Assembly: GCA_026125795.1 (NCBI GenBank)
Contig: JAHCKM010000003.1
Coordinates: forward strand, 372,001-436,000
DNA: 64,000 nucleotides
Direction: 5' to 3'
Source of the DNA: Burkholderiaceae bacterium
Lineage (GTDB): Bacteria > Pseudomonadota > Gammaproteobacteria > Burkholderiales > Burkholderiaceae_C
A program made the translations under genes and the position numbers. Within the stretch, counting starts at the first letter, position 1; the number at the start of each line of letters is the position of its first letter. Shown in pieces: positions 5,751 to 63,927 of this stretch. A model generated the notes under the pieces. It was given only the letters and a program-made list of their open reading frames with translations, ran no database searches and was not told where the DNA came from.

Positions 5751-7108
5751 CACGCGAGCTCCACGCTCTGGCCCAACCGGGGCACCGTTGCGGACCAGCC
5801 CAGGTCGCGCTCGATGCGTTGCCGCAGGGCATCGGCCGGTCCCGGCTCGCCGTGGTTGAGGTAGACGCCGCGCGGCGGCCGCGGTGCGGTTGCCAGCCAA
5901 CGCACGAGTTGCGTGGCGTCGGCGTGCGCCGACATGCCGGGCAGCGACACGACCTGGGCATCGATCGTCACGTCCTCGCCGTGGATGCGGACGCTGCGCT
6001 CGCCCGCCAGCAGCCGGGCACCGCGCGTGCCACCCGCCTGGTAGCCGGCGAACACGATGGTGTTGCGGCGGTCCGGACCCAGGGCTTTCAGGTGGTGGAG
6101 CACGCGCCCGCCGGTGGCCATGCCGCTGGCCGACACGATGATCGCCGGGTAGCGCAGCGCATTCAATGCGCGCGACTCCTCGACCGTTCGCGTCATCTTG
6201 GCGACGTGGCACATGCCGCTGCATTCCTCCGGTGACAGGCGATGCTCCGCACGATGCCGGTGGTAGATCTCCGTCATGTCGATCGCCATCGGGCTGTTCA
6301 GGAAGACCGGCAGGTCCGGTATCGCGCCGCGCTTCTTCAGCCGATGTATCGCGTACAGCAGCGCTTGGGCACGGCCGACCGCAAAGGCCGGCACGATGAC
6401 GATGCCGCCACGCGCCGCGGTGCGCTTGATCGCATCACCGAACGCGGCCTCGGCGTCGTGCGTGTCGTGCAGCCTGTCGCCGTAGGTCGACTCGATCACT
6501 ACATGGTCGGCGCGCTCGATCGCGGCGGGCGCGCGCATGATCGGATCGTCGGGACGGCCCAGGTCCCCGGAAAAGAGCACGGTCGTGTCGCCCGAGGTCA
6601 GCTCGGCCGAGCCGGCACCGAGGATGTGGCCGGCCGCGCGCAGGCGCAGATGCAACACACCGGCCACGTCCGTGCGTTGCTCGAAGGCGAGCGGTTCCAG
6701 TCGGCGCAGCGCGCGCTCGGCGTCATCTTCGGTGTACAGCGGCAGGGCCGGGCGGTGCTTGGAGATCTTGTGGCGGTTGGCGTACTCCGCGTCTTCCTCC
6801 TGCAGCCGCGCACTGTCGGGTAGCAGGATCCGGCACACGTCGATCGTCGATGGCGTTGCGAACACCGGGCCGCGGAAGCCCCGTTTGACGAGCAGCGGCA
6901 GCGCCCCCGAGTGATCCAGATGCGCGTGCGTCAGCACCACCGCGTCGAGCTTGGCCGGATCGAACGGGAACGGCTCCCAGTTCATCACCCGCAGGTTCTT
7001 GTAGCCCTGAAACAGCCCGCAGTCGACGAGCACCTGCCTGCCTTCGTGCGTGACGAGCGTCTTGGAGCCGGTGACGGTGCCGGCGGCACCGAGGAAGTCG
7101 AGCTTCAT
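5750..7108 (-). CDS. Beta-CASP metallo-beta-lactamase fold RNase
   Basis: A 452-residue protein of the CPSF73/TTHA0252 type. The zinc motif HAHLDHSG is at residues 61-68 (H61, H63, D65, H66), SGDLG follows, then a beta-CASP insert. Other motifs are [23 protein letters not shown] and NHGEP. Known relatives are endo- or exoribonucleases acting on mRNA. The ATG at 7108 begins [15 protein letters not shown], the canonical family start; an upstream extension in the frame has no family resemblance. It lies between the phosphoketolase and the phosphorylase on the same strand. Such RNases recur in low-oxygen gene clusters with these neighbours, but its target here is unknown. Confidence 0.9.
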
Positions 7109-7145
7109 GGGGCAGGCTTTCGAGTCGTGAATGGGAGCCAGGTGC

Positions 7146-9641
7146 TCACCGCAGCACCTGCGGGTCGCCGCGTCCTTGCACGGCGGCGAGCTCACCGTTG
7201 CTGAGCCAGCCGGCCGCGTCGACGCCCAGCGCCTGGGCCGAGGCCGCGAGCAGATGGGCCCACGTGCACTGGTTCGCGAACAACATGCCGAACGTGTCCA
7301 GCGTTCCGCCGCGGTTCTTGAAGCCGAGGAAGCGAGTGACTTCGCGCCCGGTGTCGATGCGGCGCAGCACGCCGGCCAGCAGCTCGGTGCGGGTGTGCGA
7401 CACGACGACGCGCGCGCTGCTGTGCGCGGGGAACAGCGCGCCAAGAGCCTCGTCGGACAGCGTGACCCGCGCCTCGCTGTCGTCGCGCGGCAACCGCAGG
7501 CGCCCGGGCTCGAGAGCGACGACGACCGCGTGGGCGACGCCGTGCGTCTGAAGCCGGCTCGAAGCTCGTAGCGCCTCGCCCAGTTGGTAGGCACCGATCG
7601 CGACCAGGACCAATCTTTCGCCGGCAGCGCCGCTGCCGACGATGCGCAGCGCGCCATCGGCTGCGAGCTGGCGCGCCTGCCGACGGTCAAGGCGGGCCGG
7701 CACCGGGCGCTTCGGCGCAACGATCGCCCAGATCTCGCCTTGCGTTCGGTAGCAGTCCTCCAGGCAGGCGACGGCCGAGTTCGCGTCCGGAGGGAACAAC
7801 ACCCTGGCGCGGTCCGCGGGTTCGGCCATCCAGGCTTCCGACAGCGTCGGATCCTGGTGCGACAGCTCGTTCTTGCCGTTCTCCCACGCATGCGACGTGA
7901 GAATCACCGGCACCGACAACCAGCCCGGCGCACGACCCGCGAGCGCCTGGTGGCGCGCGAAGTTCATCTCCTGGCGCATCGCGCCGAGCATCTTCACCGC
8001 GAAGGCCTCGTAGCTGACGACGAGGTTCAGCCCGGCCTTGTTCGCCAGCGCCGCCGAGACGACGGCCTCTTCGTTCAGCGCCGTGATCACGGCGCCGTCG
8101 AGCGCTTCAGCAACGCCCGGCTCCGGGCGCGTCGTCCGGTGGCGAAAGCGTTCCAGCGTGCCCGCCATGCCGTTGCTGCGCAGCTCATCGGGGTTGCCGA
8201 CACGCACGCGAAGGCCGGGGTTGGCCTCGGCGATGGCCAGGAATGCCCGGTCCAGTGCCTCCATCGGCGACACGTCCACCGTGGACGAAGCCGGTTCGTG
8301 CCAGGGCAAGCTCGCTTGCACGCAGGCGGCGCGGCGCGCCGACAGCGCATGGTCGCGTTCGCGCACCCGGCCCTGCTCGGCGTGATTGCTCAGAGCTCGA
8401 ACCGATTCCGCGAGCTCGCCCGGCGAGACCCGGAGATCGCGGCTCGCATGGTTGAACGCGTCGCGTGCCGCAAGGTCGTTGGCGGGATTCGCCCCCAGCG
8501 GCAGGTTGTGCGCGAGGTTCGTGCCCGCGCCCGGGAAACCATAACCCTTGGGTGCCTGGGCGATCGTGTAGTGCAGCGCCGCCGGGTAGTGCAGCGAACC
8601 GGCCTGCGCCGCCGCTGCGCAGGCCGACAAGCGGGCCTCGGCTTCGATGATCGCCCACGCGAACGCCGCCGGGTCGGTGCCATCGATCAGCACTGGATCG
8701 AACCCGTTGAGCCGTAGGTGTTGGGCAAGCCACTCGGCACCGCCGTCCTGCGCCATCGAACTGCGCTGCTCGATGCGGCGGCCATTGAGCAGCATGATGG
8801 GCAGGGTCAATCCGCAGTCGCCGGCCCGCCACCAACGCGGTGCCCAGTCGGCACCGCGTTGCTCCTCGAACGCGCCGTCGCTCAGGAAGGCGACCAACGT
8901 CTCGCCCGGCAGCGGCATGTGTACGTACTGCAGTTCGGCAAAGCCGAGGTAGCCGCCTTCGATCAGGCCGCCAGCCGTGTGCGCATTGACGTGGCTGCCG
9001 AGCGGCACGCCCGGGTCGCCGTCGGGTGAGAGCGCATAGGAATAGAAGTCCGAGCAAAGCCGCGACAGGCCCGCTTGCGTGGCGTCGTAGCGGCTGGCCT
9101 GCTCAGGATGAAGATTGCCGACGAGCACGTTGACGGCATCGATCGCGGCGACGCAGTGGCCCTGGCCCATGAGCCACGACCGGGTCCGTCCGGTCAGCGC
9201 ATTGGCGAGCAGGTAGCCGACATAGGCCGGCACCATGTTCAGCGAGCCGCCGGTGTGGCCGTCCGGCGCCGCCTTGAAGTCGGACGCCTCCAGCGGCTCG
9301 CCGTCCAGGTGGACGCGCCGTGCGTAGGTCATGTGCGCCACCAGCCACATGGCGGCACTGGCCACGCGGTCCGCTGCCGAGAGCAACCGCCACAACTGCG
9401 CGGCGGTGCGCGCGGCATCGTGACCCAGCAAGTCGGTGACCAGGCGCCGCACGCGCGACTGGGTCGTGTCGTCGTGCTGGATAACGCCGAACCCCTGCGC
9501 CCATTGCGCGAACAACGCATCGTCTCGGCGCCAGACCTGTGCCTCGGCGGCGATGCGGTGCTGCTCGTGCGTCGCCGGCCGCGTGGGCGCGTCGAGCGCA
9601 TAGGGAAAGACGTGCGCGCCATCGGCTTGTCTGTCGATCAC
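7146..9641 (-). CDS. xfp: Xylulose-5-phosphate/fructose-6-phosphate phosphoketolase
   Basis: An 831-residue thiamine-diphosphate enzyme that splits xylulose 5-phosphate or fructose 6-phosphate into acetyl phosphate and an aldose phosphate. Clear family segments are PDGHTGGSLNMVPAYVGYL, GPGH-like MGQGHCV, HVNAHTAGGLIEGGYLG, the cofactor motif FLSDGAFEEQRGADW, and ANPGLRVRVGNPDE in the second half. Length fits the family (about 790-830). Acetyl phosphate would feed the acetate kinase encoded nearby at 11353-12597, giving ATP. The gene is followed after 37 bases by the beta-CASP RNase gene, so the operon likely continues. Confidence 0.95.
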   Translation of the reverse strand: MIDRQADGAHVFPYALDAPTRPATHEQHRIAAEAQVWRRDDALFAQWAQGFGVIQHDDTTQSRVRRLVTDLLGHDAARTAAQLWRLLSAADRVASAAMWLVAHMTYARRVHLDGEPLEASDFKAAPDGHTGGSLNMVPAYVGYLLANALTGRTRSWLMGQGHCVAAIDAVNVLVGNLHPEQASRYDATQAGLSRLCSDFYSYALSPDGDPGVPLGSHVNAHTAGGLIEGGYLGFAELQYVHMPLPGETLVAFLSDGAFEEQRGADWAPRWWRAGDCGLTLPIMLLNGRRIEQRSSMAQDGGAEWLAQHLRLNGFDPVLIDGTDPAAFAWAIIEAEARLSACAAAAQAGSLHYPAALHYTIAQAPKGYGFPGAGTNLAHNLPLGANPANDLAARDAFNHASRDLRVSPGELAESVRALSNHAEQGRVRERDHALSARRAACVQASLPWHEPASSTVDVSPMEALDRAFLAIAEANPGLRVRVGNPDELRSNGMAGTLERFRHRTTRPEPGVAEALDGAVITALNEEAVVSAALANKAGLNLVVSYEAFAVKMLGAMRQEMNFARHQALAGRAPGWLSVPVILTSHAWENGKNELSHQDPTLSEAWMAEPADRARVLFPPDANSAVACLEDCYRTQGEIWAIVAPKRPVPARLDRRQARQLAADGALRIVGSGAAGERLVLVAIGAYQLGEALRASSRLQTHGVAHAVVVALEPGRLRLPRDDSEARVTLSDEALGALFPAHSSARVVVSHTRTELLAGVLRRIDTGREVTRFLGFKNRGGTLDTFGMLFANQCTWAHLLAASAQALGVDAAGWLSNGELAAVQGRGDPQVLR

Positions 9642-9653
9642 TTTGCGGCCTCG

Positions 9654-10316
9654 TCATGCGTGGTGGTGCGTCGGACCTGATGCGCCGATCCGTGGAAAGA
9701 ACCGCGGCGTCCGATGCGCGTAGGCCTCCCATTCGGCGCCAAACGTCTTGGCCGCATCGCGCTCTTCCGTGATGGCCAGGCGCACGTACATCGCGACGAG
9801 GATGGGGAACATGGCCAGGGTCAGCACGGTCGGCCACTGCAGCAGGAAGCCGAACATGATCAGCACGAAGGCGACGTACTGCGGGTGCCGAATGCGCGCA
9901 TAGGCGCCGGTGTGCGCCAGCGTGCCGGCGCGCTGTGCGGCATAGAGCACCGACCAGGCGGACGACAGCAGCCAGAACCCGCCGCCGATGAAGATCGCGC
10001 TGAGCAGGTGGAACGGGCCGAAGTGCGGATTGGCGCGCCAGCCGAACATCACCTCGAGCAGGTGGCCCGCGTCGTGCGACAGGAAGTCCACGCCGGGGAA
10101 CTTGGTGCCCAGCCAGCCCGACAACAGGTAGATCGTCAGCGGGTAGCCGTACATCTCGGCGAACAGCGCCACCAGGAATCCCGAAAACGCGCCGAACGAT
10201 CGCCAGTCGCGCTTGGACTGCGGCCTGGCGAAGCTGAACGCGAAGATGACGAAGACGAGCGAATTGATGATGACCAGGGACCACAGTCCGTAGGCCGGTG
10301 CGTTGTCGTGCGACAT
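9654..10316 (-). CDS. Isoprenylcysteine carboxyl methyltransferase-like membrane protein
   Basis: A 220-residue integral membrane protein with about five hydrophobic helices. Its C-terminal half has the ICMT/PEMT signature ARIRHPQYVAFVLIMFGF followed by ITEERDAAKTFGAEWEAY. Such proteins methylate small lipid or thiol substrates using S-adenosylmethionine; the bacterial substrate is not known. The gene lies between a DUF2933 gene and the phosphoketolase gene, 12 bases before the latter. A broken relative is at 18443-18861. Confidence 0.8.
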   Translation of the reverse strand: MSHDNAPAYGLWSLVIINSLVFVIFAFSFARPQSKRDWRSFGAFSGFLVALFAEMYGYPLTIYLLSGWLGTKFPGVDFLSHDAGHLLEVMFGWRANPHFGPFHLLSAIFIGGGFWLLSSAWSVLYAAQRAGTLAHTGAYARIRHPQYVAFVLIMFGFLLQWPTVLTLAMFPILVAMYVRLAITEERDAAKTFGAEWEAYAHRTPRFFPRIGASGPTHHHA

Positions 10317-10336
10317 GGCGAGTCCTTGCGGTTGGC

Positions 10337-10645
10337 TCAGTGTTGGTGGGGCGGCCGGGCAGCGGTCGGCGGCGTCGGCGGTGAACTCCGGCCGTCAGCT
10401 TCCGGTCGCGACGAGCCGTGTCCTTGATGGCTGCCGTGTCCGCCATGGCCTCGGTGGAACAGGTGCATCAACGGGCACAGTGCGAGCAGGACGAAGGGAA
10501 GCGCGCCCAACAGATGCGCGCGGTGCTCGGCGAAGAAGAAGAAACCGGCTACCGCCAGGAAGCCGAAGAAGACCCACGGCAGCGCGGCGCCGCGCTGCGC
10601 GCGGGGGCCCGGTGCGTGATGGGATTGGAACGATCGATTCGTCAT
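10337..10645 (-). CDS. DUF2933 protein with His-rich tail
   Basis: A 102-residue protein starting MTNRSFQSHHAPG at 10645. The DUF2933 core is FFFFAEHRAHLLGALPFVLLALCPLMHLF, followed by a histidine/glycine tail (HRGHGGHGSHQGHG) that could bind metal at the membrane surface. Function unknown. It is the second DUF2933 copy in the window and precedes the ICMT-like gene by 20 bases. The 184 bases upstream of it (10646-10829) carry no gene. Confidence 0.75.
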   Translation of the reverse strand: MTNRSFQSHHAPGPRAQRGAALPWVFFGFLAVAGFFFFAEHRAHLLGALPFVLLALCPLMHLFHRGHGGHGSHQGHGSSRPEADGRSSPPTPPTAARPPHQH

Positions 10646-10829
10646 AGCGCGCGCCCTCGATGGATCGGTTTGCCTGGCCCGGCAATTGCGGCGCCTGGCT
10701 GAATGCTCAACCCAAGTGCAGCGCACAGGTCAAGCGTCTCGGCTGCTCGGTAAGGCCAGCTGGCTGTGGCGGAGGAACCCGACAAGCTCGATCAGGCAGT
10801 CAGCCGCAACCCCCAGCAGTCGCGGAGCG

Positions 10830-11279
10830 TCAAATGCGCAGGCGAGGCGCGATGTCCAGCGGAGCGCGCGACGGCGGCGGCCGCTCCAGACAGTGCGGCC
10901 GAGTGAGAGCCGCGATCGGCACGGGCCGCAGCCAGGTAGCCGGGGCATACGTGCAGGCGGCGGCGTCGCCCACCGCGAAGGACAACTTCTTGACCGCGAC
11001 AGCGCCCGTCCCGTCGATCAGGTAGGTCGGCTCTTCGCATGCGTGGTCGCCGCGATCCTTCGCTGGCGCCTCACCGGACGAGCCATGCTCATGCGGCGCC
11101 GCTCGGTGCTGCGCTGGCGCGGAACGGTCCTGTGCGCTGATGGCCTGCGCGGTCCCTGGTGGCGCACCGTGCTCGCCGTACAGCTCACACAGCGCCGTGC
11201 CTGCAACGGCGCGCATGGCGAACAACAACAGCAGTGCAGTCGCTGCACTCCTGTTCAGTTTGCGTCGCCACGTCACCAT
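10830..11279 (-). CDS. Small secreted His/Cys-containing protein
   Basis: A 149-residue protein with a signal-like N-terminus (MVTWRRKLNRSAATALLLLFAMRAVAGTALC) and a mature part holding scattered histidines, an acidic/His patch and one HACEEP cysteine. No family is recognised with certainty. It resembles in plan five other small secreted proteins in this window, which sit near metal genes. An FNR-type box ends 64 bases upstream of the start, so it may be induced at low oxygen. The next gene downstream on this strand (DUF2933) is 184 bases away. Confidence 0.5.
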   Translation of the reverse strand: MVTWRRKLNRSAATALLLLFAMRAVAGTALCELYGEHGAPPGTAQAISAQDRSAPAQHRAAPHEHGSSGEAPAKDRGDHACEEPTYLIDGTGAVAVKKLSFAVGDAAACTYAPATWLRPVPIAALTRPHCLERPPPSRAPLDIAPRLRI

Positions 11280-11342
11280 CTCGTCGATCCTGCATCGGCG
11301 CTGATCTGGGTACAGAGGCTAACCGGCGGCATCGCAAAGCGA

Positions 11343-11356
11343 TTGATATCCGTCAA
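11343..11356 (-). promoter_or_regulatory. FNR/ANR-type box
   Basis: TTGATATCCGTCAA matches the FNR/ANR consensus TTGAT-N4-ATCAA at nine of ten positions. Its centre is about 70 bases upstream of the ATG at 11279, a fitting place for a class II activator site (-41.5) with a short leader. It overlaps the 3' end of the acetate kinase gene. Assignment by pattern only. Confidence 0.5.
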
Positions 11357-12597
11357 GATCGGCGCCCGTCGCCTCGGTGGCCGTTCGCCGTCAGCATCAG
11401 CGCTTCGCGCGCGGCGACACGGCCCTCGTCGGTGGGCACAACCCAGACTTCGATCGTACTGTTTGCAGCATGGATCGGTGCGACCGTGGTGCCATCGGCC
11501 GAATCGTTGGCGACCGGATCGATCTGCACGCCCAGATAGCCGAGCGCGGCACAGACATCGGCCCGGAGGATCGCGTCATGCTCGCCGATCCCACCGGTGA
11601 ATCCGATCACATCGATGCCCCCGAGGCAGGCCGACAGCGCGCCGCACTCGCGCACCACGCGATAGGCGAACAGCTCGATGGCGCGTGATGCGCCAGGCGC
11701 CGCGCTGGCGCGCAGTGTGCGCATGTCGGCGGACACGCCCGAGACCCCCAGCAGGCCAGACTGCCTGTACAGCAGGTTCTCGAGGGTGGAGGCATCCATG
11801 CCCTGTCGCAACCAGTGCAGCAGCACCCCGGCGTCCAGCGATCCGCAACGGGTGCCCATCATCAGACCATCCAGCGCGGAGAAGCCCATGGTGGTCGCCA
11901 GGCTGCGGCCGCCTCGCACGGCGCACAGGCTGGCGCCATTGCCCAGATGCGCCAGCAGCATCCGTCCGCTAGAGCGCGGTGTCATGCAAGCCAGCGTATC
12001 GGTCACGTACTGGTAGGACAGACCATGGAAGCCATAGCGTCGGATGCCCTGCCGGTGGAACGTCTCGGGCAACGCAAAGCGCTGCTCCACCTCGGGCACG
12101 CCGGCATGAAAGGCCGTATCGAAGCAGGCCACCTGCGGCAGGCCGGGGCATGCGCGCCGGAAGGCGCGCACGCCGGCCAGGTTGTGCGGCTGGTGCAGAG
12201 GCGCCAGCGGCGCGACGCTTTCGAGGTAGGCCAGCACGTCGTCGTCGATGACCACCGACGTGGTGAAGCGGTCGCCTCCGTGCACGATGCGATGGGCCAC
12301 CGCGCGCAGGTGGATGCCGTCCTCGTGATCGATCTCGCCGATGACGGCCTGCAACGCGGCATCGAAATGCGACTCGCCGGCGCGCGGCGACAGGGCGCGC
12401 TTGGTCTTCTCGCGGCCCAAGCGCTGGACCGCCACAGTCGCCTGCCCGCCCGGCTCCAACCCCTCGACCTGTCCCGCCAGGAGCGCGGGAGATGCCGCAG
12501 CTCCGTCGCCAGGGTATAGCGCGAACTTCAGCGACGACGATCCGGCGTTCACGCTCAGCACCGCGTCGGCGCGCGCCGAGCGATCGGGCACGATCAT
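11353..12597 (-). CDS. ackA: Acetate kinase
   Basis: A 414-residue enzyme interconverting acetyl phosphate plus ADP with acetate plus ATP. Seen are the N-terminal phosphate-loop motif SVNAGSSSLKFALY, the catalytic-region VAHRIVHGG, FDTAFH, LLAHLGNGASLCAV, and TMGFSALDGLMMGTRCGSLD, plus GFTGGIGEH near the C-terminus. Full length for the family (about 400). The start overlaps the stop of the MaoC-Pta fusion as ATGA. With phosphoketolase and phosphotransacylase it forms an ATP-yielding route to acetate. Confidence 0.95.
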   Translation of the reverse strand: MIVPDRSARADAVLSVNAGSSSLKFALYPGDGAAASPALLAGQVEGLEPGGQATVAVQRLGREKTKRALSPRAGESHFDAALQAVIGEIDHEDGIHLRAVAHRIVHGGDRFTTSVVIDDDVLAYLESVAPLAPLHQPHNLAGVRAFRRACPGLPQVACFDTAFHAGVPEVEQRFALPETFHRQGIRRYGFHGLSYQYVTDTLACMTPRSSGRMLLAHLGNGASLCAVRGGRSLATTMGFSALDGLMMGTRCGSLDAGVLLHWLRQGMDASTLENLLYRQSGLLGVSGVSADMRTLRASAAPGASRAIELFAYRVVRECGALSACLGGIDVIGFTGGIGEHDAILRADVCAALGYLGVQIDPVANDSADGTTVAPIHAANSTIEVWVVPTDEGRVAAREALMLTANGHRGDGRRS

Positions 12598-56677: not shown

Positions 56678-57517
56678 ATGAAGACCCTCGTCTTGTGCAA
56701 CCAGAAGGGTGGCGTCGGCAAGAGCGCCGTCGCCACGCTGCTGGCGCACCACCTGGCCCAGCGCGGCCGCCGCGTCCTGGCGATCGACCTCGATCACCAG
56801 GCCAACTTCACCAAGCCGCTGCGGCTGTCCGGGCGCGCGGCGATCACCGCTTTCGCGGCCGACGCGCTGCTCACCGGGACGCCGCCGCCGCTGCCCGACA
56901 AGCCTTTCGTGCTGGTGCCGGGCGACCGCGCACTTCTCGGGCTGGAGCGTCAGCCTGCTCTGCACACGCCGTTCGCGCGGAGCTTTCGCGCGTTCCTGGT
57001 GGCCGCGCGCGACGCCTTCGATGTCTGCATCATCGACACCAACCCGAACCCCGACATCCGCGTCATCGCCGCGCTCGCGTCGGCCGACTACGTGCTGTCG
57101 CCGATCCAACTCAATCAGGAGGCGATGGACGGTGTCAGCGGACTGCTAAACCACGATCGCGTGGGCCTGCGCAAGATCAAGGCGGTACTGAACCCGAAGC
57201 TCGCGCTGATCGGCCTGCTGCCGACGATGGTCGAGCCGACGCCGTTCCAGAAGGCCAACTTCCTGCAGGTGGTGCAGCAGTACCACCCGCTGATGATCCG
57301 GATCGGCGCCGGGCCCGGCGCGTTCGCGTCGATCCCGCGCCGATCGTGCATCGCCGAGGCGCAGGCCGAGGGCGCCGTGCTGTGGGAGATGAAGAAGACC
57401 GCCGCGCGCGACGCCTGGCGGGAGATCGAATCGAGCGTCGCGCGCATCGGCGACATCGTCACCGGCGCCGCTTCCACCACGAACCGCAAGGAGGCCGCCG
57501 ATGCCGCTGCAACTTGA
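56678..57517 (+). CDS. parA: ParA-type partition ATPase
   Basis: A 279-residue ParA/Soj ATPase. The deviant Walker A motif is KGGVGKS (10-16), with the Asp of motif A' in IIDTNPNPD. GAAGGAGCCTGAACTC precedes the ATG. It works with ParB in segregation or element maintenance. The last codons overlap the start of parB by 17 bases, so the pair is coupled. Confidence 0.92.
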   Translation: MKTLVLCNQKGGVGKSAVATLLAHHLAQRGRRVLAIDLDHQANFTKPLRLSGRAAITAFAADALLTGTPPPLPDKPFVLVPGDRALLGLERQPALHTPFARSFRAFLVAARDAFDVCIIDTNPNPDIRVIAALASADYVLSPIQLNQEAMDGVSGLLNHDRVGLRKIKAVLNPKLALIGLLPTMVEPTPFQKANFLQVVQQYHPLMIRIGAGPGAFASIPRRSCIAEAQAEGAVLWEMKKTAARDAWREIESSVARIGDIVTGAASTTNRKEAADAAAT

Positions 57518-58445
57518 TGACTTGGCCGCGCTCGACGCGCCGAGCCCGAGTTCGACCGGCCAGCCGCTGCTGCTGCCGCTGGCCGACATCGACGAAGACC
57601 CCGACCAGCCGCGCCGCGAGTTCGACCCCAACGCGCTGCAGGAACTCGCCGAGACGATCAGCGAGCGCGGCGTGCGGCAGCCGATCTCGGTGCGGCCGAA
57701 CCCGCAGCAGTCCGGCCGCTGGGTGCTCAACTTCGGCGCGCGGCGGTTGCGCGCGTCGAAGCTCGCGGGGCTGGACACCATCCCCGCGTTCATTGACACC
57801 ACGGCCGACAGCTACGACCAGGTGATCGAGAACGAGCAGCGCGAGGGACTGAAGCCGCTCGAGCTGGCGCTGTTCGTCCAGAAGCGCCTGGCTGCCGGTG
57901 ACAACCAGGCCGAGATAGCCAGGCGCATGGGCAAGAGTCGCCAGTACGTGACATTCGCTACCGCGCTGATCGATGCGCCGGACTGGCTGCTCGAGCTGTA
58001 CCGGAAGGGGCGCTGCAAAGGCATGGCTGAGTTGTACGAGTTGAGACGGCTGCATGGCGAGCATCCGCAGACGATCGAGGCATGGTGTTCGGGGCACGAA
58101 CCGGTCACTCGCAGCGATGTCACGGACCTGCGCGCCAGGATTTCAGGCGACAAGTGCGCATTGTCGGAAGGCGAAACTGCAGCTGGGCCGAAGCGCTCGG
58201 ATGTCGGAGGACCCGCTGCATTGAGCGAGCCGGCAGCCTCAGATCCAAGGCCAAGTGCGAGGGCGGGTCAACAACGCAGGATGAATCTGCACGTGGAGAT
58301 GGATGGCGAGAACTATCGGCTTGTCTTGTCGGAGGCGCCGCAGATGGAAGGGCACTTGTATGTGCAGCCGCTGTCTGGCGGGACGCGCCGGCTGGTACCT
58401 GCCGCGTCGCTGAGGCTGATCGGGTTTGTGAGTCGAACGAATTGA
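57501..58445 (+). CDS. parB: ParB/KorB-like DNA-binding partition protein
   Basis: A 314-residue protein. The ParB/Srx-type N-domain has DIDEDPDQPRREFDPNALQE and FGARRLRASKLAG, the HTH is GDNQAEIARRMGKSRQYVTF, and the C-terminal end (LHVEMDGENYRLVLSEAP) resembles the SH3-like dimerisation domain of KorB. It should bind a palindromic operator/centromere; the 28-bp palindromes are the best candidates. Bases 58446-58534 after it are gene-free. Confidence 0.9.
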   Translation: MPLQLDDLAALDAPSPSSTGQPLLLPLADIDEDPDQPRREFDPNALQELAETISERGVRQPISVRPNPQQSGRWVLNFGARRLRASKLAGLDTIPAFIDTTADSYDQVIENEQREGLKPLELALFVQKRLAAGDNQAEIARRMGKSRQYVTFATALIDAPDWLLELYRKGRCKGMAELYELRRLHGEHPQTIEAWCSGHEPVTRSDVTDLRARISGDKCALSEGETAAGPKRSDVGGPAALSEPAASDPRPSARAGQQRRMNLHVEMDGENYRLVLSEAPQMEGHLYVQPLSGGTRRLVPAASLRLIGFVSRTN

Positions 58446-58534: not shown

Positions 58535-58556
58535 TCATCGTCAGATCTGACGATGA
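58535..58556. promoter_or_regulatory. Perfect 22-bp palindrome at the methylase start
   Basis: Eleven-base arms TCATCGTCAGA and TCTGACGATGA meet directly; the centre AGATCT contains GATC. It ends nine bases before the GTG of the Dam-like gene and so covers the place where a ribosome binding site would be. A regulator or the methylase itself may bind here. Confidence 0.75.
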
Positions 58557-58565
58557 TTCGCGCCC

Positions 58566-59258
58566 GTGCGCTATCCCGGGGGCAAAGGCAAATCCTTCCA
58601 CCACGTCATCAACCTGATGCCGCCGCATCGTGTCTACATTGAGACGCACTTGGGCGGCGGTGCGGTGATGCGTCACAAGCGGCCAGCGATGCACAGCATC
58701 GGCATCGACGCTGACGCGCAGGTAATCGGCATCTGGTCGCAGAGGGATCTCCACGGAGTCGAGCTGGTCTGCGAGCGTGCCGAGGACTTTCTCGCACAGT
58801 ACCCTTTCCAGGGCGACGAGCTGGTCTACGCCGACCCACCCTACTACCCCGGGACCCGTCGCCAAGCCAGGGTCTACCGGTATGACTATGCCGCCGAGGA
58901 TCATGCACGGCTGCTGGTGCTGCTCGCCTCGCTTCCCTGCAAGGTCATCCTCTCCGGTTATGCCAACGACCTGTACAGCGGATTGCTGCATGGCTGGCGA
59001 ACCCGCACCTTCAAAGCCAAGACCCACACTGATGTCCGTGAAGAGACGCTGTGGTTCAACTATGTGCCGCCGCTGGTGCTGCACGACAGCCGTTACTTCG
59101 GCGAGACCTTTCGGGAACGGCAGACAACCAAGCGCCGCCTGCAGCGCCTGCAGGAGAAGGTGACGCGTATGAACCCCGTCGAACGGGCGGCGTTTACGCA
59201 ATGGCTTAGCGAAGCATATCCCTCGCTTCTCTCACACAACCGGAGCGACACACGATGA
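58566..59258 (+). CDS. Dam-like adenine-N6 DNA methyltransferase
   Basis: A 230-residue D12-class methylase. RYPGGKGKS opens the SAM site, ETHLGGGAVMRHK follows, and the catalytic motif is DPPY (90-93, in LVYADPPYYPGT). The start is a GTG: a stop lies in frame 12 bases before, and no other start is upstream. It has no clear ribosome binding site. Target sequence unknown; GATC is possible because it lies in the palindrome at its start. The stop overlaps the glycosylase start as ATGA. It is shorter than E. coli Dam (278). Confidence 0.9.
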   Translation: MRYPGGKGKSFHHVINLMPPHRVYIETHLGGGAVMRHKRPAMHSIGIDADAQVIGIWSQRDLHGVELVCERAEDFLAQYPFQGDELVYADPPYYPGTRRQARVYRYDYAAEDHARLLVLLASLPCKVILSGYANDLYSGLLHGWRTRTFKAKTHTDVREETLWFNYVPPLVLHDSRYFGETFRERQTTKRRLQRLQEKVTRMNPVERAAFTQWLSEAYPSLLSHNRSDTR

Positions 59259-60094
59259 CGCAGACGGCCAGCCTCCTCACGCGCACAGGCACCATCCAGG
59301 TGGAGATGCCATCGCCCGATGAAATGCTGCTGGGCAACGTACGCTGGGGCGCGTTCGACGCATTCCCGACACCGGCCTACTGGCAGTACCAGGTGTTGGC
59401 CCGGCGTCTCACCGGCCGGCCAGCCGGCTATAGGCTCGGCCGCACGTTGGCCGAGGAAGTGACGGCATGTCTGCTGGGCGGTCACGGCATTCCTGCCACG
59501 GTGGGCTTGGCGGCGTACCAGCGGCTGCATGAGCGTGGAGCGTTCGGTGCACAGCCGCCGTCCGAAGCAACGCTCGAGGAGTGGTTGAAGGAGCCCCTGC
59601 GGATTGCGTCGCAGAAGGGCGTGCGTCAGGTGCGCTATCGCTTCGCCGCGCAGAAGGCACGCTTCCTGGCGGCGGCGCTGCCCGAGGTCCACGCAGCGCC
59701 GGCCTTCGACACCGGGCGGCAGTTGCGCGACTGGCTGATGAAGCTCCGAGGAGTGGGACCGAAGACCGCCTCGTGGATCGCCCGCAACTGGAAGGATGCG
59801 GACGACGTCGCGATCTTGGACATACACATCATGCGCATCGGCCAGGTACTGGGCCTGTTCCCGCGCGAGCTCACGGTGGAGCGCCACTACCCGGAACTCG
59901 AATCCTTGTTCATCCAATTCAGCGATGCATTGAATGTGCGCGCTTCCGAGCTCGACGCGGTGATTTGGTACGAGATGGCCTCCTCACCCAAGGCGGCGCG
60001 TGCGGTGATCGAGCAGTTGGAGGCACCGTCGACGACGTCTGTGCGCTGGCGCTCGCGGGAAGGCACTCGCCAGCGTGAATTGAGCCTGGTTTGA
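59255..60094 (+). CDS. OGG-type HhH-GPD DNA glycosylase/lyase
   Basis: A 279-residue HhH-GPD protein. The hairpin is LRGVGPKTASWIAR with the catalytic lysine K170, and the general-base aspartate D189 in AILDIHIMRIG. The 19-residue K-D spacing equals that of human OGG1. So it should remove a modified purine and nick the backbone. Proteins of this kind appear in defence loci, for example as Cap11 of type IV CBASS. Coupled to the methylase by ATGA. It ends seven bases from the converging SagB-type gene. Confidence 0.88.
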   Translation: MTQTASLLTRTGTIQVEMPSPDEMLLGNVRWGAFDAFPTPAYWQYQVLARRLTGRPAGYRLGRTLAEEVTACLLGGHGIPATVGLAAYQRLHERGAFGAQPPSEATLEEWLKEPLRIASQKGVRQVRYRFAAQKARFLAAALPEVHAAPAFDTGRQLRDWLMKLRGVGPKTASWIARNWKDADDVAILDIHIMRIGQVLGLFPRELTVERHYPELESLFIQFSDALNVRASELDAVIWYEMASSPKAARAVIEQLEAPSTTSVRWRSREGTRQRELSLV

Positions 60095-60101
60095 AGCGAG
60101 A

Positions 60102-60764
60102 TCAGGCCGCACTTACCACGGCAAGACCGACCGCCTGCAAAGCGGATGAGCCGGGCAGGTATTCGGTCAAATACGGTTGCCCTGTCGTGCCTAGCGGGCA
60201 GAACGCAAGCCCGAGCGCTTCGGCCATCAACGAAAGGTAGCCCAGCACCACACCGGCGTCGCGCCACACCAGCGACTCGGGGTGTTCGTACTTGGCCGCG
60301 GTCTTGCCGGGTTCAGCTACCAGGCCGATCAGCGTGCCATGCTCGAGCTCGACCAAGCTGCTTGCGGCCCGTCGGCCGGCCGCAGCGCTTGCGCCGGAGT
60401 GCGGCAGTTCGATGAGGGCATGTTCGAGCGGGTCGTAGCGCAGCCACGGCCCAGTCTCGCGCGCTAGCAGAATGTGGATTGGGTGCATGGCCCCGGCCGA
60501 CGGATGGACCCGCGACTCCTGATCTGGCCCGAAGACGCTCGGACGCGCGCTACGGTTGCGGCAGGCGAGCCACAGGATCTCTCCCAGTGTCGTGTCGTCG
60601 AGGGGTTTCTCGAACTGACGCCGCGTTTGACGCTGCTCCAGGAGCGCCACCAAGTCGAGCGCCATGGGCTGCGCGCGTGGTGCCAGCGCGGTCCTCGCAC
60701 CGGCCGGCCAAGCATACGGCGCGTAGTGCACCCGCACTGCGCGGGGCACGGGATCAGGCCGCAT
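60102..60764 (-). CDS. SagB-type FMN oxidoreductase
   Basis: A 220-residue nitroreductase-fold protein from ATG 60764, which lies 11 bases inside the end of the QueC-like gene. RQTRRQFEKPLDD, RVHPSAGAMHPIHILLARE and WRDAGVVLGYLSLMAEALGL are the SagB/ThcOx-type FMN motifs. These oxidise azolines to azoles in peptide natural products or reduce other substrates. No cyclodehydratase is near, so a peptide azole role is not supported. Here it may act on a nucleobase or amide made by its neighbours. Confidence 0.85.
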   Translation of the reverse strand: MRPDPVPRAVRVHYAPYAWPAGARTALAPRAQPMALDLVALLEQRQTRRQFEKPLDDTTLGEILWLACRNRSARPSVFGPDQESRVHPSAGAMHPIHILLARETGPWLRYDPLEHALIELPHSGASAAAGRRAASSLVELEHGTLIGLVAEPGKTAAKYEHPESLVWRDAGVVLGYLSLMAEALGLAFCPLGTTGQPYLTEYLPGSSALQAVGLAVVSAA

Positions 60765-61362
60765 CGGTGTACGCCGAGCCCAGTTCCGCATAGGTCGCGA
60801 AGTACTTGTTGCAGCCTCGGCAGTCACCGCATGCGGTGTCGGACCTGTGGCAGCTGTGCGACCAGGCCAGCAGGCCGGGCGGCACGCCAACCATCCGGAT
60901 CAGTTCGGTGGTGGTGAGCGTGATCGCCGGCGCGACAACCCGCAGGCCACCTTCCTGGAACCGCATTAGGTTGTCCAAGTGGCTGATGAACTCTGACGTA
61001 CCGTCGCGGTGGCTCTCGCCGTCGGACTTGACGGTCCCGATGTAGAGGGTTTGGACCTCGCTGGCGATCGCGCGCATGCCAGCAAGCGTGATGAGTAGCT
61101 GATTTCGGTACGGCCACCAGTCCGAGGTGGCGCCGCGTGGATCGGCCGCCTTGTGTGCCATATCACCCGAGCCGAGCGAACTGCAGTCCACCGTGATGAC
61201 GTCATGCGCGATGCCGAGCTCGTGGCAGACCTGGGCGGCGGCGAGCTTCTCGGCGGCCGCGGCCTTCTGGCCGTAGTCGATCGTCACTGCCCATTGCGGG
61301 CGTTTCCACCAGGCGATGGCGATCGAGTCCATGCCGCCCGACAATAGAAGGCCTGTCTTCAC
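60754..61362 (-). CDS. QueC-like 7-cyano-7-deazaguanine synthase homologue
   Basis: A 202-residue PP-loop ATPase. GTG at 61362 gives VKTGLLLSGGMDS, the normal QueC start, has GGGAGG upstream, and overlaps the previous stop as GTGA. The PP-loop SGGMDS is at 8-13, PYRNQLLITLA is the QueC second motif, and the zinc site is four cysteines in SCHRSDTACGDCRGC. QueC adds ammonia to a carboxyl-deazaguanine by ATP. No queuosine genes (queD, queE, queF) are nearby, so it probably works in another pathway, as the type IV CBASS Cap9 does. Confidence 0.88.
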   Translation of the reverse strand: MKTGLLLSGGMDSIAIAWWKRPQWAVTIDYGQKAAAAEKLAAAQVCHELGIAHDVITVDCSSLGSGDMAHKAADPRGATSDWWPYRNQLLITLAGMRAIASEVQTLYIGTVKSDGESHRDGTSEFISHLDNLMRFQEGGLRVVAPAITLTTTELIRMVGVPPGLLAWSHSCHRSDTACGDCRGCNKYFATYAELGSAYTDAA

Positions 61363-62576
61363 AGCTTCACGGCCTCCCACAGCGTGGTGTAAAGCGCGGT
61401 GGTGTAGTTCTCGCAGAGTGTGCAGCCCGAGCCTTCCATCATCTTCAGGCTCTCACCCTTGTGGCGCTCGCTGTAAACGACAACCGGCTTGTTCAAGGCT
61501 CGCGCGTACCCGATCTCGTAGACCGTGCCGGCGTCGAGCCCGTCGGTGATGGCCAGCACCAGGTCACATTCTTCGATGGCCCGCAGGTCCTGTACGACCA
61601 CATCGCTGGCGGCGCCCAGGCCGACATCGTGGTAGGGCGAGAAGACCTGCAGATTCATCTCGCGCAGGCTGTTGCGGGCCTGCTCGACCATCCAGACCTG
61701 CGCCAGGTCGAAGAAGGGACCGGCCAGGTAGACTCGGCGGCGCGTGCCACTGCGGTACTGCGCCGAGAGCTCGACCGGCGGGAAGTTCTTGGTGGCCAGG
61801 GTGTCGGCGCTCGGGAAGCCTTGGGTCTCACAGTAGTAGCTAGTAGCGCGCGAGGCAATCTCGGCCGCGTCGCGCGGCGACTTGCCATCGTGCATCCAGG
61901 CGTTCGCGAAGTGCGCCACGAAGCAATCGCCTGAGCCCAACTTCCACACTCGTTCCGTGCGATAGGCGGGGACCTGATCGGTGCCCTGGGCGGTCCAGAC
62001 GAAGGCTCCTTCCGGTCCCATCTTGACGACCACCACCTCGGCGTTCTGCTGCTGCGCGAGCGCGGGCGCCGTTCGCGAAGGATGTTCGCCGGCCATGCCG
62101 GCCATGCGACCGGCTTCAAAGTTGTTCAGGACCAGCGCCAGGTGGTCGGCGGTGGAGCCGTTGGCGTGGAAGGGCTGGCTGGCATGTTCGTTCTGCGGAT
62201 CGTAGACAGCCCACTTCGCATGGACCACCGAGTTGCCTTCGAGCATGCCGAAGCGCACCACCTTGTCCTCGGTCACCGCAATGGGCTCGAATGGCTGGTC
62301 GGGTACGTTGTGGATCTTCGGCACCGCCATGTCATGAAGGTAGGTGAAGCCGACCATGTCGGGCACGGCGGTCGCGTTCGCTTGGAAAGACTTTAGCCAA
62401 ACGCCTTGATCTCTCATCGCCTGCAGCGCCTCTTCGTTCATGTACGACTGCAGTACCACGGGCGTGTCCACCGTCGCAATAGCGAGCGCGGCCCGGCCCG
62501 CAGAACCGAAGATTGCGTTCCAGCGAGGGTGGACGCAGTACTCGCGGTACACGCCTCCGACAACGTGTAGCGTCAT
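61359..62576 (-). CDS. PfkB-kinase / nucleoside 2-deoxyribosyltransferase fusion
   Basis: A 405-residue two-domain protein. Residues 1-265 are a PfkB/ribokinase-type sugar or nucleoside kinase with the anion-hole motif GSGDCFVAHFANAW (D217). The usual N-terminal glycine pair is present but the start is short. Residues 280-405 are a nucleoside deoxyribosyltransferase: YLAGPFF, DLRAIEECDLVLAITDG, and the nucleophile E354 in GTVYEIGYA. It could swap bases on a nucleoside and phosphorylate it. Start ATG shares a base with the previous stop (TGATG). Confidence 0.85.
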   Translation of the reverse strand: MTLHVVGGVYREYCVHPRWNAIFGSAGRAALAIATVDTPVVLQSYMNEEALQAMRDQGVWLKSFQANATAVPDMVGFTYLHDMAVPKIHNVPDQPFEPIAVTEDKVVRFGMLEGNSVVHAKWAVYDPQNEHASQPFHANGSTADHLALVLNNFEAGRMAGMAGEHPSRTAPALAQQQNAEVVVVKMGPEGAFVWTAQGTDQVPAYRTERVWKLGSGDCFVAHFANAWMHDGKSPRDAAEIASRATSYYCETQGFPSADTLATKNFPPVELSAQYRSGTRRRVYLAGPFFDLAQVWMVEQARNSLREMNLQVFSPYHDVGLGAASDVVVQDLRAIEECDLVLAITDGLDAGTVYEIGYARALNKPVVVYSERHKGESLKMMEGSGCTLCENYTTALYTTLWEAVKL

Positions 62577-62905
62577 CAGGTGTGCGTGACTTCGACGCGA
62601 ACCTGGCCGCTGGTGATCGAGAGGACTTCGGCCTGGTAGTCGTGCCCGTCCGCGATGCAGTTGCGAAGGCGCGTCGCCTCAGGGCCGGCGAGACCCCCGA
62701 CCAGCGTGCCGTTCTTCAGCACCCTCACCACCACCTGCGCGCCAAGCTGTACCACATCGATGTCAAGCACATCGCCAACTTTCAAGGCAGCCACCGCCGC
62801 CGGTTTCGGGCTGGACACAAGGATGCTGAACTTCAGGTCGCTGCACGAGGCCTGGGTGTCGGCAACTCCGCCCCCGCCGCCCCCACCGCCGCTGCTTCCG
62901 GACAT
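62576..62905 (-). CDS. Small protein with polyglycine N-terminus
   Basis: A 109-residue protein from ATG 62905, preceded by TTGAGGGAGGCAGGC, a strong ribosome binding site. It begins MSGSSGGGGGGGGVADTQ, a disordered glycine run, then a compact beta domain (about 25-109: VGDVLDIDVVQLGAQVVVRV, LSITSGQVRVEV) with two cysteines. No family recognised; the fold may be HIRAN- or OB-like. First gene of the minus operon. The exposed glycine tail could be a site for modification by the QueC-like enzyme, which is a guess. Confidence 0.75.
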   Translation of the reverse strand: MSGSSGGGGGGGGVADTQASCSDLKFSILVSSPKPAAVAALKVGDVLDIDVVQLGAQVVVRVLKNGTLVGGLAGPEATRLRNCIADGHDYQAEVLSITSGQVRVEVTHT

Positions 62906-63342
62906 GCCTGCCTCCCTCAATGGAATGGCTAGGAATACAGACTACTCAGCCACGCGACGGGGCGCAATGGGTCTTCTCCACACCAGGGGTCGGTAGTGCG
63001 CTTGACCGGCACGTGCAAAGCGCTGTCCTTGACAGTGCTGTCTGATCGATCGCGCGGGAATGTTGGTCTTGGGTGGGACTGCAGCTGATCGACCCAAATA
63101 TGACCGCCACCTCCGCCGCATTGCTGTCGTCCCGTCGCACCTGCCTCGGTCACTGAGCCCTGTCAAACCGTTTGACAGCTCTCTCCGACGCGGCGTTGGC
63201 GATGATTCTTCGGCCCAAATCATCGGTCTTGCGACCTCGATCGAGACCAATACTGAATGCGTAGGTGATTGCAGAGATAGGCGGCTTGCCGCCAAGTTGT
63301 GAAGCGCTGCGCTTGTCTCGCAACGCATCGATTGCTCGGTCC
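62906..63342. other. 437-base gene-free region with palindrome-like copy 3
   Basis: Divergent control region between the polyglycine gene and the mobilisation gene. It holds no convincing frame. At 63199-63226 a 28-base element GCGATGATT...AATCATCG has 8-base arms and looks like a degenerate copy of the palindromes at 55912 and 56432. Promoters for both directions must lie here. Confidence 0.5.
63199..63226. repeat. 28-bp palindrome, degenerate copy 3
   Basis: Same length as copies 1 and 2 and same outer sequence GCGATGA, with 8 pairing bases per arm (CGATGATT and AATCATCG) and an unpaired middle. It lies 117 bases before the mobilisation gene. Weaker evidence than the other two. Confidence 0.45.
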
Positions 63343-63927
63343 ATGAACACCCCGCCTCACGCGTTCGTCACGGTGGACATGCGCGGCCTGAAGGCCGCGC
63401 TGGTTGCGCGAGCGCAGGCTGAGCGGGTCAGTGTGTCAGTGGTGGTGCGACGTGCCGTCGAGCGCGAACTGGGCGTGCTCGACGCAGCGACGCAACCGGA
63501 GGCGGGTGCGTCGACCATGGCGCCAACAAGTGCAATCGTGAAGCTGTCCATCCGATTGACACGCGCTGAAGCCGAGCAGCTCGATGCGAGCGCGTGGCGG
63601 GCCGGTCTCTCGCGTGGCGCGTTCCTCGCGGGTCTGATGGCGAACGTGCCTTCGCTGTCGGGGGAGGGCAGCAGTCGACTCGACTGCGTGGCCGCGCTCA
63701 CTGCATCGAGCGCCGAACTCTCAGCGCTAAGCCGGGACATCAGACACCTGACGGCGCTGTTGCGGCAAGGCGAGGTGCGCGCTGCCCAGGAGTACCGCCG
63801 CTTGCTCGATACCCTGGGCGATGACGTGCGCGCGCACCTGACTCTGGCTGCAAGCGTCCTCGCCGAGCTCCAGCCAGCTCGCAAATCCCGAAGCAGCGTC
63901 GCGCCGAGAGGGCGTGCAACCGTTTGA
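63343..63927 (+). CDS. MobC-like relaxosome accessory protein
   Basis: A 194-residue protein. N-terminal ribbon-helix-helix-like part: AFVTVDMRGLKAALVARAQA, ERVSVSVVVRRAVEREL. The middle (KLSIRLTRAEAEQLDASAWR, GLSRGAFLAGLM) resembles the plasmid mobilisation MobC domain, followed by a helical tail. It would help a relaxase act at oriT. ATG at 63343 is taken as start. The next gene begins 16 bases later. Confidence 0.7.
   Translation: MNTPPHAFVTVDMRGLKAALVARAQAERVSVSVVVRRAVERELGVLDAATQPEAGASTMAPTSAIVKLSIRLTRAEAEQLDASAWRAGLSRGAFLAGLMANVPSLSGEGSSRLDCVAALTASSAELSALSRDIRHLTALLRQGEVRAAQEYRRLLDTLGDDVRAHLTLAASVLAELQPARKSRSSVAPRGRATV

What the first reader, a model, noticed from the sequence alone, without database searches (positions are those of the whole stretch)
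58535..62905. Six-gene cassette: Dam-like methylase, OGG glycosylase, SagB-type oxidoreductase, QueC-like enzyme, PfkB-deoxyribosyltransferase fusion, polyglycine protein
Two fully overlapping operons converge with only seven bases between them, and lie between partition and mobilisation genes, where defence cargo is often placed. The set combines base synthesis or exchange (QueC-like, deoxyribosyltransferase, kinase), redox chemistry (SagB-like), DNA marking (Dam-like) and base removal (OGG-like). QueC and OGG are found together in type IV CBASS (Cap9, Cap11), but no CD-NTase, TGT or effector of that system is visible. I know of no described system with this set. Best guess: anti-phage defence, or self/non-self marking by a modified base.
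Basis: partly seen in the sequence, partly recalled or inferred. Interest (0 to 1): 0.93.

Follow-up and report, generated by a model that had tools for sequence, protein, structure and literature searches.

The report
QueC-family protein-tagging cassette, probably anti-phage
A small set of genes, carried together by very different bacteria and in part by some archaea, looks like a machine that attaches a guanine-like base to the front end of a small protein, probably as part of defence against viruses, using parts not yet described together.

Summary
They form a conserved module. In 29 of 29 uncut loci chosen by the QueC-like gene alone, it sits with the PfkB-NDT fusion and the small Gly-rich protein; OGG is in 23, SagB in 19, Dam in 7. 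Two more loci, found by QueC profile among 369 genomes, carry five and six of the genes.

The "polyglycine protein" has a fixed N-terminus: M-[SGC]-G in 50 of 52 copies. This resembles the MGGS and MGTS tails of proteins modified, or thought to be modified, by QueC relatives in type IV CBASS and Qat. Two actinobacterial cassettes also carry QueD and QueE, which make 7-carboxy-7-deazaguanine (CDG), in genomes with no other QueC or QueE match.

Best reading: the QueC-like enzyme joins CDG to the small protein's N-terminus; the others process or read the conjugate. Not shown: the reaction, defence, the effector. Against it: residue 2 is usually Ser, not Gly, and the window's genome has no QueE match. 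The QueC/PfkB pair is in print ("Cluster 4", guessed purine salvage); my searches found no record of the whole module.

The parts
58566..59258 (+). Dam-like D12 class DNA adenine methylase, 230 aa, GTG start, DPPY motif; present in a subset of cassettes
   Evidence: below the curated Dam cut-off, above Pfam's; DPPY in 12 of 12 Dam copies; in 7 of 29 uncut QueC-chosen loci
59255..60094 (+). OGG-type HhH glycosylase/lyase; Lys170 and Asp189 at the HhH active-site positions (positions recalled) conserved
   Evidence: PF22175 1.9e-12; closest solved structures are named N-glycosylase/DNA lyase, best 6.4e-20; K and D in 37 of 37 aligned copies
60102..60791 (-). SagB-type FMN oxidoreductase (azoline-oxidase-like); start inferred at ATG 60791, longer frames possible
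   Evidence: TIGR03605 6e-15, below its curated cut-off; PF00881 8e-10; profile's best solved relatives CyaGox and a SagB-type dehydrogenase, about 1e-12; start checked
60754..61362 (-). QueC-like ATP-pyrophosphatase of PF06508 'Cluster 4'; GTG start overlapping the stop of PfkB-NDT (GTGA); a longer start at 61380 is possible
   Evidence: PF06508 7e-25; SGGMDS, YGQ(x)5E, WWPYRN, HRDG, CHx5CxxCxGCxK; separate clade 100/99
61359..62576 (-). PfkB sugar/nucleoside kinase fused to nucleoside 2-deoxyribosyltransferase (NDT)
   Evidence: PF00294 7.6e-13, PF05014 3.2e-18; a GxGD pattern in 50 of 50 and GTxxExG pattern in 49 of 50 frames over 350 aa (their catalytic meaning is recalled)
62576..62905 (-). 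small protein, 109 aa: MSG N-terminus, about 20 disordered Gly-rich residues, then a compact beta-rich domain; proposed substrate
   Evidence: ATG preceded by GAGGGAGG; alignments A7 and A8; AlphaFold2 mean pLDDT 88, ten-residue means of the domain 93-98; no match in PADLOC, NCBIfam or PHROGs at the limits used, only weak scattered Pfam ones
56678..57517 (+). ParA-type ATPase (context); start inferred at ATG 56678
   Evidence: AAA_31 6.5e-26; start checked
57501..58445 (+). ParB/KorB protein (context)
   Evidence: PF02195 5e-19, PF08535 1.1e-13
63265..63927 (+). NikA/RHH-like mobilisation protein (context), followed by a relaxase that runs off the window end
   Evidence: PF01402 1.2e-05, above its cut-off; PF21983 0.00027, below its cut-off; relaxase PF03432 2.5e-11 in L108:15915-16901

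Best explanation
A QueC-family protein-conjugation module, most likely anti-phage. The QueC-like enzyme activates the carboxylate of CDG (7-carboxy-7-deazaguanine) with ATP and joins it to the N-terminus of the small MSG protein after Met removal, in place of ammonia. The PfkB-NDT fusion then binds or glycosylates and phosphorylates the protein-bound base; SagB oxidises the conjugate; OGG, Dam or a neighbouring dGTPase or Mrr nuclease act on DNA or dGTP as readout or effector. Shown here: families, co-occurrence, conserved motifs, CDG-making genes inside two cassettes. Inferred: the conjugation, every later step, and defence.
For: Trio small + PfkB-NDT + QueC in 29 of 29 uncut loci found by QueC alone, and in both survey loci. 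N-terminus M[SGC]G in 50 of 52 copies, agreeing with 12 of 12 annotated starts (three annotated records do not list the gene), against 5 of 547 neighbouring ORFs read from their first Met; residues 2-3 are fixed while the linker after them varies. Published parallels: CD-NTase MGGS and QatB MGTS (PMC13279940; PMC11996544 abstract); a Cap9-locus cyclase starts MGGSGGG. QueC keeps D126 of the guanine-reading YPD motif (51 of 51) and the P-x-RN loop. QueD and QueE follow QueC or SagB in L062 and L064, whose genomes show no other QueC or QueE match. A rhizobial relative pairs PfkB, OGG, QueC, a TIR-TGT fusion and SLATT with a small TIR protein starting MGGG. Pairwise distances of five of the parts correlate, r 0.73-0.87.
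Against: Residue 2 is Ser in 46 of 52 small proteins, Gly in 4, Cys in 1, no start found in 1, whereas the known acceptor is Gly. The stacking Tyr of QueC and Cap9 is His here (50 of 51). The QueC clade is not sister to Cap9 or to the rhizobial QueC. The window's genome has no QueE match and no other QueC; 5 of 24 other hosts also lack a QueE match, four of them MAGs. My start-choice rule for the small protein favoured the motif, so 50 of 52 is biased; the 12 annotated starts are the fairer part. The copy beside QueC in L100 has no such start. No phage assay exists and no effector is identified.
Confidence: 0.55

Rival explanations
1. Antiviral nucleotide maker: NDT adds deoxyribose to a 7-deazaguanine base and PfkB phosphorylates it, giving a deoxynucleotide analogue that spoils phage DNA; dGTPase lowers the competing dGTP; OGG clears the analogue from host DNA. 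The small protein is a carrier.
For: NDT and PfkB patterns intact; a dGTPase-type family within 7 kb of the cassette in 7 of 54 loci, six of these seven given to and six matches to PADLOC dGTPase there; OGG residues conserved; QueD/QueE in two cassettes.
Against: Does not by itself explain the fixed MSG N-terminus; no enzyme among the six that would reach the triphosphate; OGG not found in 6 of 29 loci (two of them end close to the cassette); dGTPase absent from most loci.
Confidence: 0.2
2. DNA self/non-self marking by a modified base, with Dam and OGG as writer and remover.
For: Dam and OGG overlap by ATGA; QueC-derived bases are used for DNA modification in other systems (PMC13329287 introduction).
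Against: No TGT/DpdA-type transglycosylase among the six proteins; Dam in only 7 of 29 loci; trio without Dam or OGG in 6 of 29 (two of them end close to the cassette).
Confidence: 0.07
3. Ordinary purine salvage, as guessed for Cluster 4 in print.
For: PMC13329287 on the PfkB-NDT neighbour; NDT and ribokinase-like domains are salvage enzymes (recalled).
Against: Sporadic presence (2 of 368 other genomes in the class survey; full-length fusion in 1 of 198 other relatives), plasmid carriage, immune-type neighbours at some loci, and a dedicated small protein with a fixed N-terminus.
Confidence: 0.06
4. RiPP-like peptide product: the small Gly-rich protein is a precursor matured by SagB.
For: SagB-type enzyme closest among solved structures to CyaGox and a SagB-type dehydrogenase, with BmdC oxidase also matched; SG-rich tail.
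Against: No YcaO or protease match among the six proteins; the C-terminal part is a well-folded conserved domain; SagB not found in 10 of 29 loci (one cut after QueC).
Confidence: 0.07

Closest known systems
PF06508 Cluster 4 (Libby et al. 2026, PMC13329287)
   Same: QueC with SGGxDS, YGQ...E and CH(x)5CxxCxGCxK; next to a PfkB-NDT protein in about 89% of cases; HTH neighbour common
   Different: Paper suggests purine salvage and, in the parts read (1-3 of 5), does not mention the small MSG protein, SagB, OGG or Dam beside it; it prints YGQ(x)6E where I find five residues between Q38 and E44
Type IV CBASS (Cap9 QueC, Cap10 TGT; OGG as Cap11 is recalled)
   Same: QueC relative plus OGG; partner protein with a fixed small-residue N-terminus
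   Different: No CD-NTase and no TGT in the cassette; QueC is in another clade; partner usually starts MSG, not MGG
QatABCD
   Same: QueC relative paired with a protein that has a disordered N-terminal tail and fixed N-terminal motif (QatB MGTS)
   Different: No QatA ATPase or QatD TatD nuclease among the six; QueC here is about 202 aa and keeps the Asp that QatC has lost; the small protein's domain is mostly beta, QatB is all helical
Rhizobial TIR-TGT/OGG/QueC operon (L142-L144, found here)
   Same: PfkB-NDT relative, OGG, QueC, and a small protein starting MGGG
   Different: Small protein is a ThsB-type TIR; TGT fused to TIR; SLATT and TPR-S proteins (typed by Pfam in L143); NDT half not recognised by Pfam in the one copy tested; no SagB or Dam match

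Membership tests
PF06508 Cluster 4 | SGGxDS plus CH(x)5CxxCxGCxK zinc motif | tested here: met
   Window QueC has SGGMDS and CHRSDTACGDCRGCNK; C177, C184 and C187 in 51 of 51, H178 in 49, C190 and K192 in 50 of 51 copies
PF06508 Cluster 4 | Adjacent PfkB-NDT gene | tested here: met
   29 of 29 uncut QueC-chosen loci
Type IV CBASS | CD-NTase in the operon | tested here: not met
   None of the six proteins matches one
Type IV CBASS | Cap10 TGT-family protein | tested here: not met
   No PF01702 match in the six proteins
Type IV CBASS | QueC groups with Cap9 | tested here: not met
   Own clade 100/99; only two Cap9 sequences in the tree, long branches
QatABCD | QatA KAP ATPase, QatD TatD, extended QatC | tested here: not met
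   No such match in the six proteins; QueC about 202 aa
QueC-type N-terminal deazaguanylation | Partner with disordered tail and exposed N-terminal glycine | tested here: inconclusive
   Disordered tail and fixed motif yes; residue 2 is Ser in 46 of 52, Gly in 4
QueC-type N-terminal deazaguanylation | CDG available as substrate | tested here: inconclusive
   QueE match in 19 of 24 hosts and inside two cassettes; none in G000
QueC-type N-terminal deazaguanylation | CDG-protein conjugate formed | not testable with these tools
   Needs protein mass spectrometry
Anti-phage defence system | Protects cells from phage | not testable with these tools
   Only genomic context available

The most novel reading that the evidence does not exclude
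The module builds a new kind of protein-nucleotide conjugate. QueC first links CDG to the amine of Ser2, then uses its second ATP step (the one that makes a nitrile in preQ0 synthesis) to activate that amide so the Ser2 side chain closes on it as an oxazoline; SagB oxidises this to an oxazole; NDT and PfkB add deoxyribose and phosphate, leaving a small protein capped with a deoxynucleotide mimic that senses or blocks phage DNA synthesis. Residue 2 is Ser in 33 of 33 SagB loci counted, while the 5 non-Ser copies lie among the 16 loci without SagB (Fisher p 0.002, not corrected for kinship). Against: the Lys of the azoline-oxidase Lys-Tyr motif (recalled) is kept in only 13 of 30 SagB copies, the Tyr in 30 of 30; 11 loci have Ser2 without SagB.
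Probability: 0.13. Interest if true: 0.94.

Novelty: new variant of a known kind. Interest (0 to 1): 0.8.

Why it matters
QueC enzymes that tag proteins instead of making a base are a very recent finding (type IV CBASS; probably Qat). This module would be a further and widespread case, seen here, by record title or lineage, in Pseudomonadota, Bacteroidota, Cyanobacteriota, Actinomycetota, a planctomycete and a verrucomicrobial MAG and haloarchaea, with enzymes (NDT, kinase, azoline-oxidase-like) that the papers I read do not report in such systems. It makes a direct test possible: weigh one 109-residue protein with and without QueC. In two actinobacteria the cassette carries genes that make CDG, which names the probable substrate.

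Tried and rejected
Rejected: that QueC is simply canonical (separate clade; Tyr replaced by His); that the set is a chance neighbourhood; that QueC is a Cap9 or QatC. A GSG[DE]L motif first looked shared with Cap9, but a second Cap9, L141, lacks it, so I dropped it. The Q(x)5E spacing is also seen in the two Cap9 and the rhizobial QueC printed, against four residues in the two canonical rows printed there.

Led nowhere: a profile search of the small protein in the PDB gave nothing better than E 0.7; Pfam on 41 members gave only single scattered hits, best E 0.017, including weak S1/OB ones. A search for more actinobacterial copies found only the known one above 80 bits among 396 genomes; the other eight matches, 73-79 bits, were not examined. 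Papers by Burroughs and Aravind that might bear on this are not held. A jumbo-phage review that holds both words was seen in passages only and did not bear on it (PMC7824862).

Of 20 viral hits I used seven, L075-L081, and left out L082-L094. L050, L056 and L075 are cut by contig ends and were dropped before the 29; L054 and L081 stay in but end close to the cassette; L043's QueC is identical to that of plasmid locus L033. Plasmid loci L032-L039 and L095-L106 were chosen by the PfkB-NDT protein and are not in the 29. Alignment A7 holds 41 of the 52 small copies plus none from elsewhere; the 11 left out include three haloarchaeal ones (MGG, MGG, MCG). One search left out seven loci and did not test Dam. 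In the tree two of 13 canonical loci were dropped because my script had picked another ORF. In one search I scanned 60 neighbours: 56 picked by hand from the 118 listed (of 300; counted), plus four Gabija-like proteins added on purpose, so that scan is illustration, not statistics. One search left out L043, L081, both L100 copies and the second L080 copy, and added the two survey loci by hand.
Full report
Observation. The six ORFs, their strands, overlaps and the seven-base convergent gap are as described. Family searches support each name: D12 methylase, Ogg-HhH, nitroreductase/SagB, QueC, PfkB plus NDT. The small protein has no match in PADLOC, NCBIfam or PHROGs at the limits used and only weak scattered ones in Pfam. 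The cassette lies at G000:C3:430566-434905 by the offset given, between ParA/ParB and a NikA-like protein plus relaxase. Its G+C, 0.649, is close to the window's 0.677.

Conservation. A protein search of plasmids found the PfkB-NDT fusion over at least 80% of its length in 37 records. Plasmids of two Pseudomonas, a Synechocystis and a Citrobacter carry all six genes in the same order. To avoid choosing by the answer, I then searched by the QueC-like protein alone in genome and viral contigs. Of 32 loci used, 29 are not cut inside the trio; the small protein and PfkB-NDT are present in 29 of 29, OGG in 23, SagB in 19, Dam in 7. Two of these (L054, L081) end close to the cassette, so the last three counts are lower bounds. 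Among 199 relatives of the host only G000 and G176 have a full-length fusion; G176 carries five of the genes, no Dam match. A survey of 369 genomes of the class found this QueC in G000 and two others; both others carry small, PfkB-NDT, QueC, SagB and OGG, and one also Dam. Pairwise distances of five parts correlate at r 0.73-0.87 over 29-47 loci (the permutation test ignores shared ancestry). In seven close pairs dN/dS is 0.04-0.24, apart from one truncated Dam. Motifs are intact in PfkB, NDT, OGG and Dam (one NDT of 50 misses the pattern).

The small protein. It begins M[SGC]G in 50 of 52 copies. My rule for choosing starts favours this, so the fairer test is the 12 copies with an annotated start in public records, all of which agree; three annotated records do not list the gene. 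Background is 5 of 547 neighbouring ORFs read from the first Met, some of them surely not genes. Residue 2 is Ser in 46, Gly in 4, Cys in 1 of 52. In the 41 aligned copies residue 3 is Gly 40 times, and the Gly-rich stretch after it varies. The window's ATG has a strong ribosome-site-like sequence. A 28-row AlphaFold2 model gives about 20 loose residues and then a domain with ten-residue pLDDT means of 93-98 and order E-H-E-E-E-H-E-E. In haloarchaea (L038, L102, L104) the domain appears twice (read by eye).

The QueC-like enzyme. It carries the Cluster 4 motif of Libby et al. (PMC13329287; parts 1-3 of 5 read). It keeps SGGxDS, YGQ with a Glu six residues after the Gln, the P-x-RN loop, the Asp that reads the guanine edge, and the zinc cysteines, but has His for the stacking Tyr. 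Solved relatives are QueC 2pg3, Cap9 9nto and QueC 3bl5. It forms its own clade, 100/99, apart from canonical QueC, Cap9 and the rhizobial form (several long branches, so deeper order is unsure).

Substrate. Two actinobacterial cassettes, L062 and L064, continue with QueD (above its curated cut-off) and a radical SAM protein whose five best matches are QueE models (below their cut-offs); the L064 protein's only solved relatives at that limit are QueE structures. Those two genomes show one QueC match and one QueE match each, both in the cassette. That is the strongest sign that the substrate is CDG. Two rhodobacteral cassettes have a VUT transporter beside them, annotated for queuosine salvage. 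Against this, G000 has a PTPS gene but no QueE match in two searches and no other QueC, and 5 of 24 other hosts have no QueE match, among them two actinobacteria (L059, L060). Either these hosts get the base otherwise, for example from the infecting phage, or their cassettes are idle, or the substrate differs.

Context. Neighbours within 7 kb recur, by clustering: an HTH gene in 10 loci, a dGTPase-type gene in 7, an Mrr-type nuclease in 4 of 54 (one or two members of each typed by Pfam). A TIR protein lies beside L033, a Bil-like ubiquitin set beside L034 and by annotation L099, Gabija genes beside L035 and L062. TniA/TniB-like genes are near L032 by annotation and near L044 and L107 by similarity. 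This is the company defence genes keep, but no random control was run.

A related arrangement. In three rhizobial plasmids (L142-L144) a PfkB relative of the fusion stands with a TIR-TGT fusion (Pfam tested in two copies; TGT above cut-off in one, below in the other), an Ogg-HhH protein, a QueC and a small ThsB-type TIR protein that starts MGGG, with SLATT and TPR-S genes near. So the same kinds of part assemble around different partner proteins: a CD-NTase in CBASS, QatB in Qat, a TIR here, and the MSG protein in the window.

Mechanism. Published work shows Cap9 joining CDG to the N-terminal glycine of a CD-NTase, with Cap10 (a TGT relative) binding the product (PMC11996544, abstract only), and makes the same likely for QatC and QatB (PMC13279940, parts 1-3 of 6 plus passages). 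By analogy QueC here joins CDG to the MSG protein, and NDT, another base-exchange enzyme, stands where TGT stands. The kinase half then suggests that a sugar is really added and phosphorylated; SagB suggests an oxidation. Residue 2 is Ser in 33 of 33 SagB loci counted and non-Ser in 5 of 16 without SagB, which fits ring closure at Ser2; three of the five are haloarchaea, so kinship may explain it, and the SagB Lys is kept in only 13 of 30. These later steps are inference.

Print record. Searches for QueC with PfkB, NDT, deazaguanylation, OGG, SLATT and Qat terms found, in the listings, the QueC/PfkB pair discussed only in PMC13329287, and nothing on the small protein or the whole set. The library lacks most subscription papers and nearly all preprints.

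Verdict. Observation confirmed; interpretation partly supported; a conserved variant of QueC-family protein-tagging systems that I find undescribed as a whole, with defence likely but untested.

Noticed in passing
L142, L143, L144 (about 6000-11800 of each); also L039 in part: Rhizobial operon of TPR-S | PfkB-NDT relative, TIR-TGT fusion, OGG, QueC, small TIR protein starting MGGG, SLATT, TIR: a possible further QueC-type immune system with a TIR as the tagged protein.
   Followed up: partly
L062:3305-4371, L064:11385-12481: QueD and QueE genes directly after the QueC or SagB gene in two actinobacteria that show no other QueC or QueE match.
   Followed up: yes
L080:8591-10140, L100:2434-4070: A second small-protein plus PfkB-NDT pair without its own QueC, next to a full trio.
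   Followed up: no
L038, L102, L104: Haloarchaeal small proteins carry the domain twice and start MGG or MCG; no SagB, OGG or Dam match in the stretches fetched.
   Followed up: partly
L032, L044, L107: TniA/TniB-like transposition genes beside the cassette, suggesting carriage by Tn7-like elements.
   Followed up: no
L070 (10001-10642): A distant Bacillaceae QueC-like protein that seems to have the Q(x)5E spacing of Cap9 (read by eye); neighbourhood not examined.
   Followed up: no
G000 (window's genome): A PTPS gene is present but no QueE match and no canonical QueC: the host seems unable to make CDG itself.
   Followed up: partly
L059:9944-10963: A 340-aa frame of no Pfam family stands where SagB stands in relatives.
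   Followed up: no
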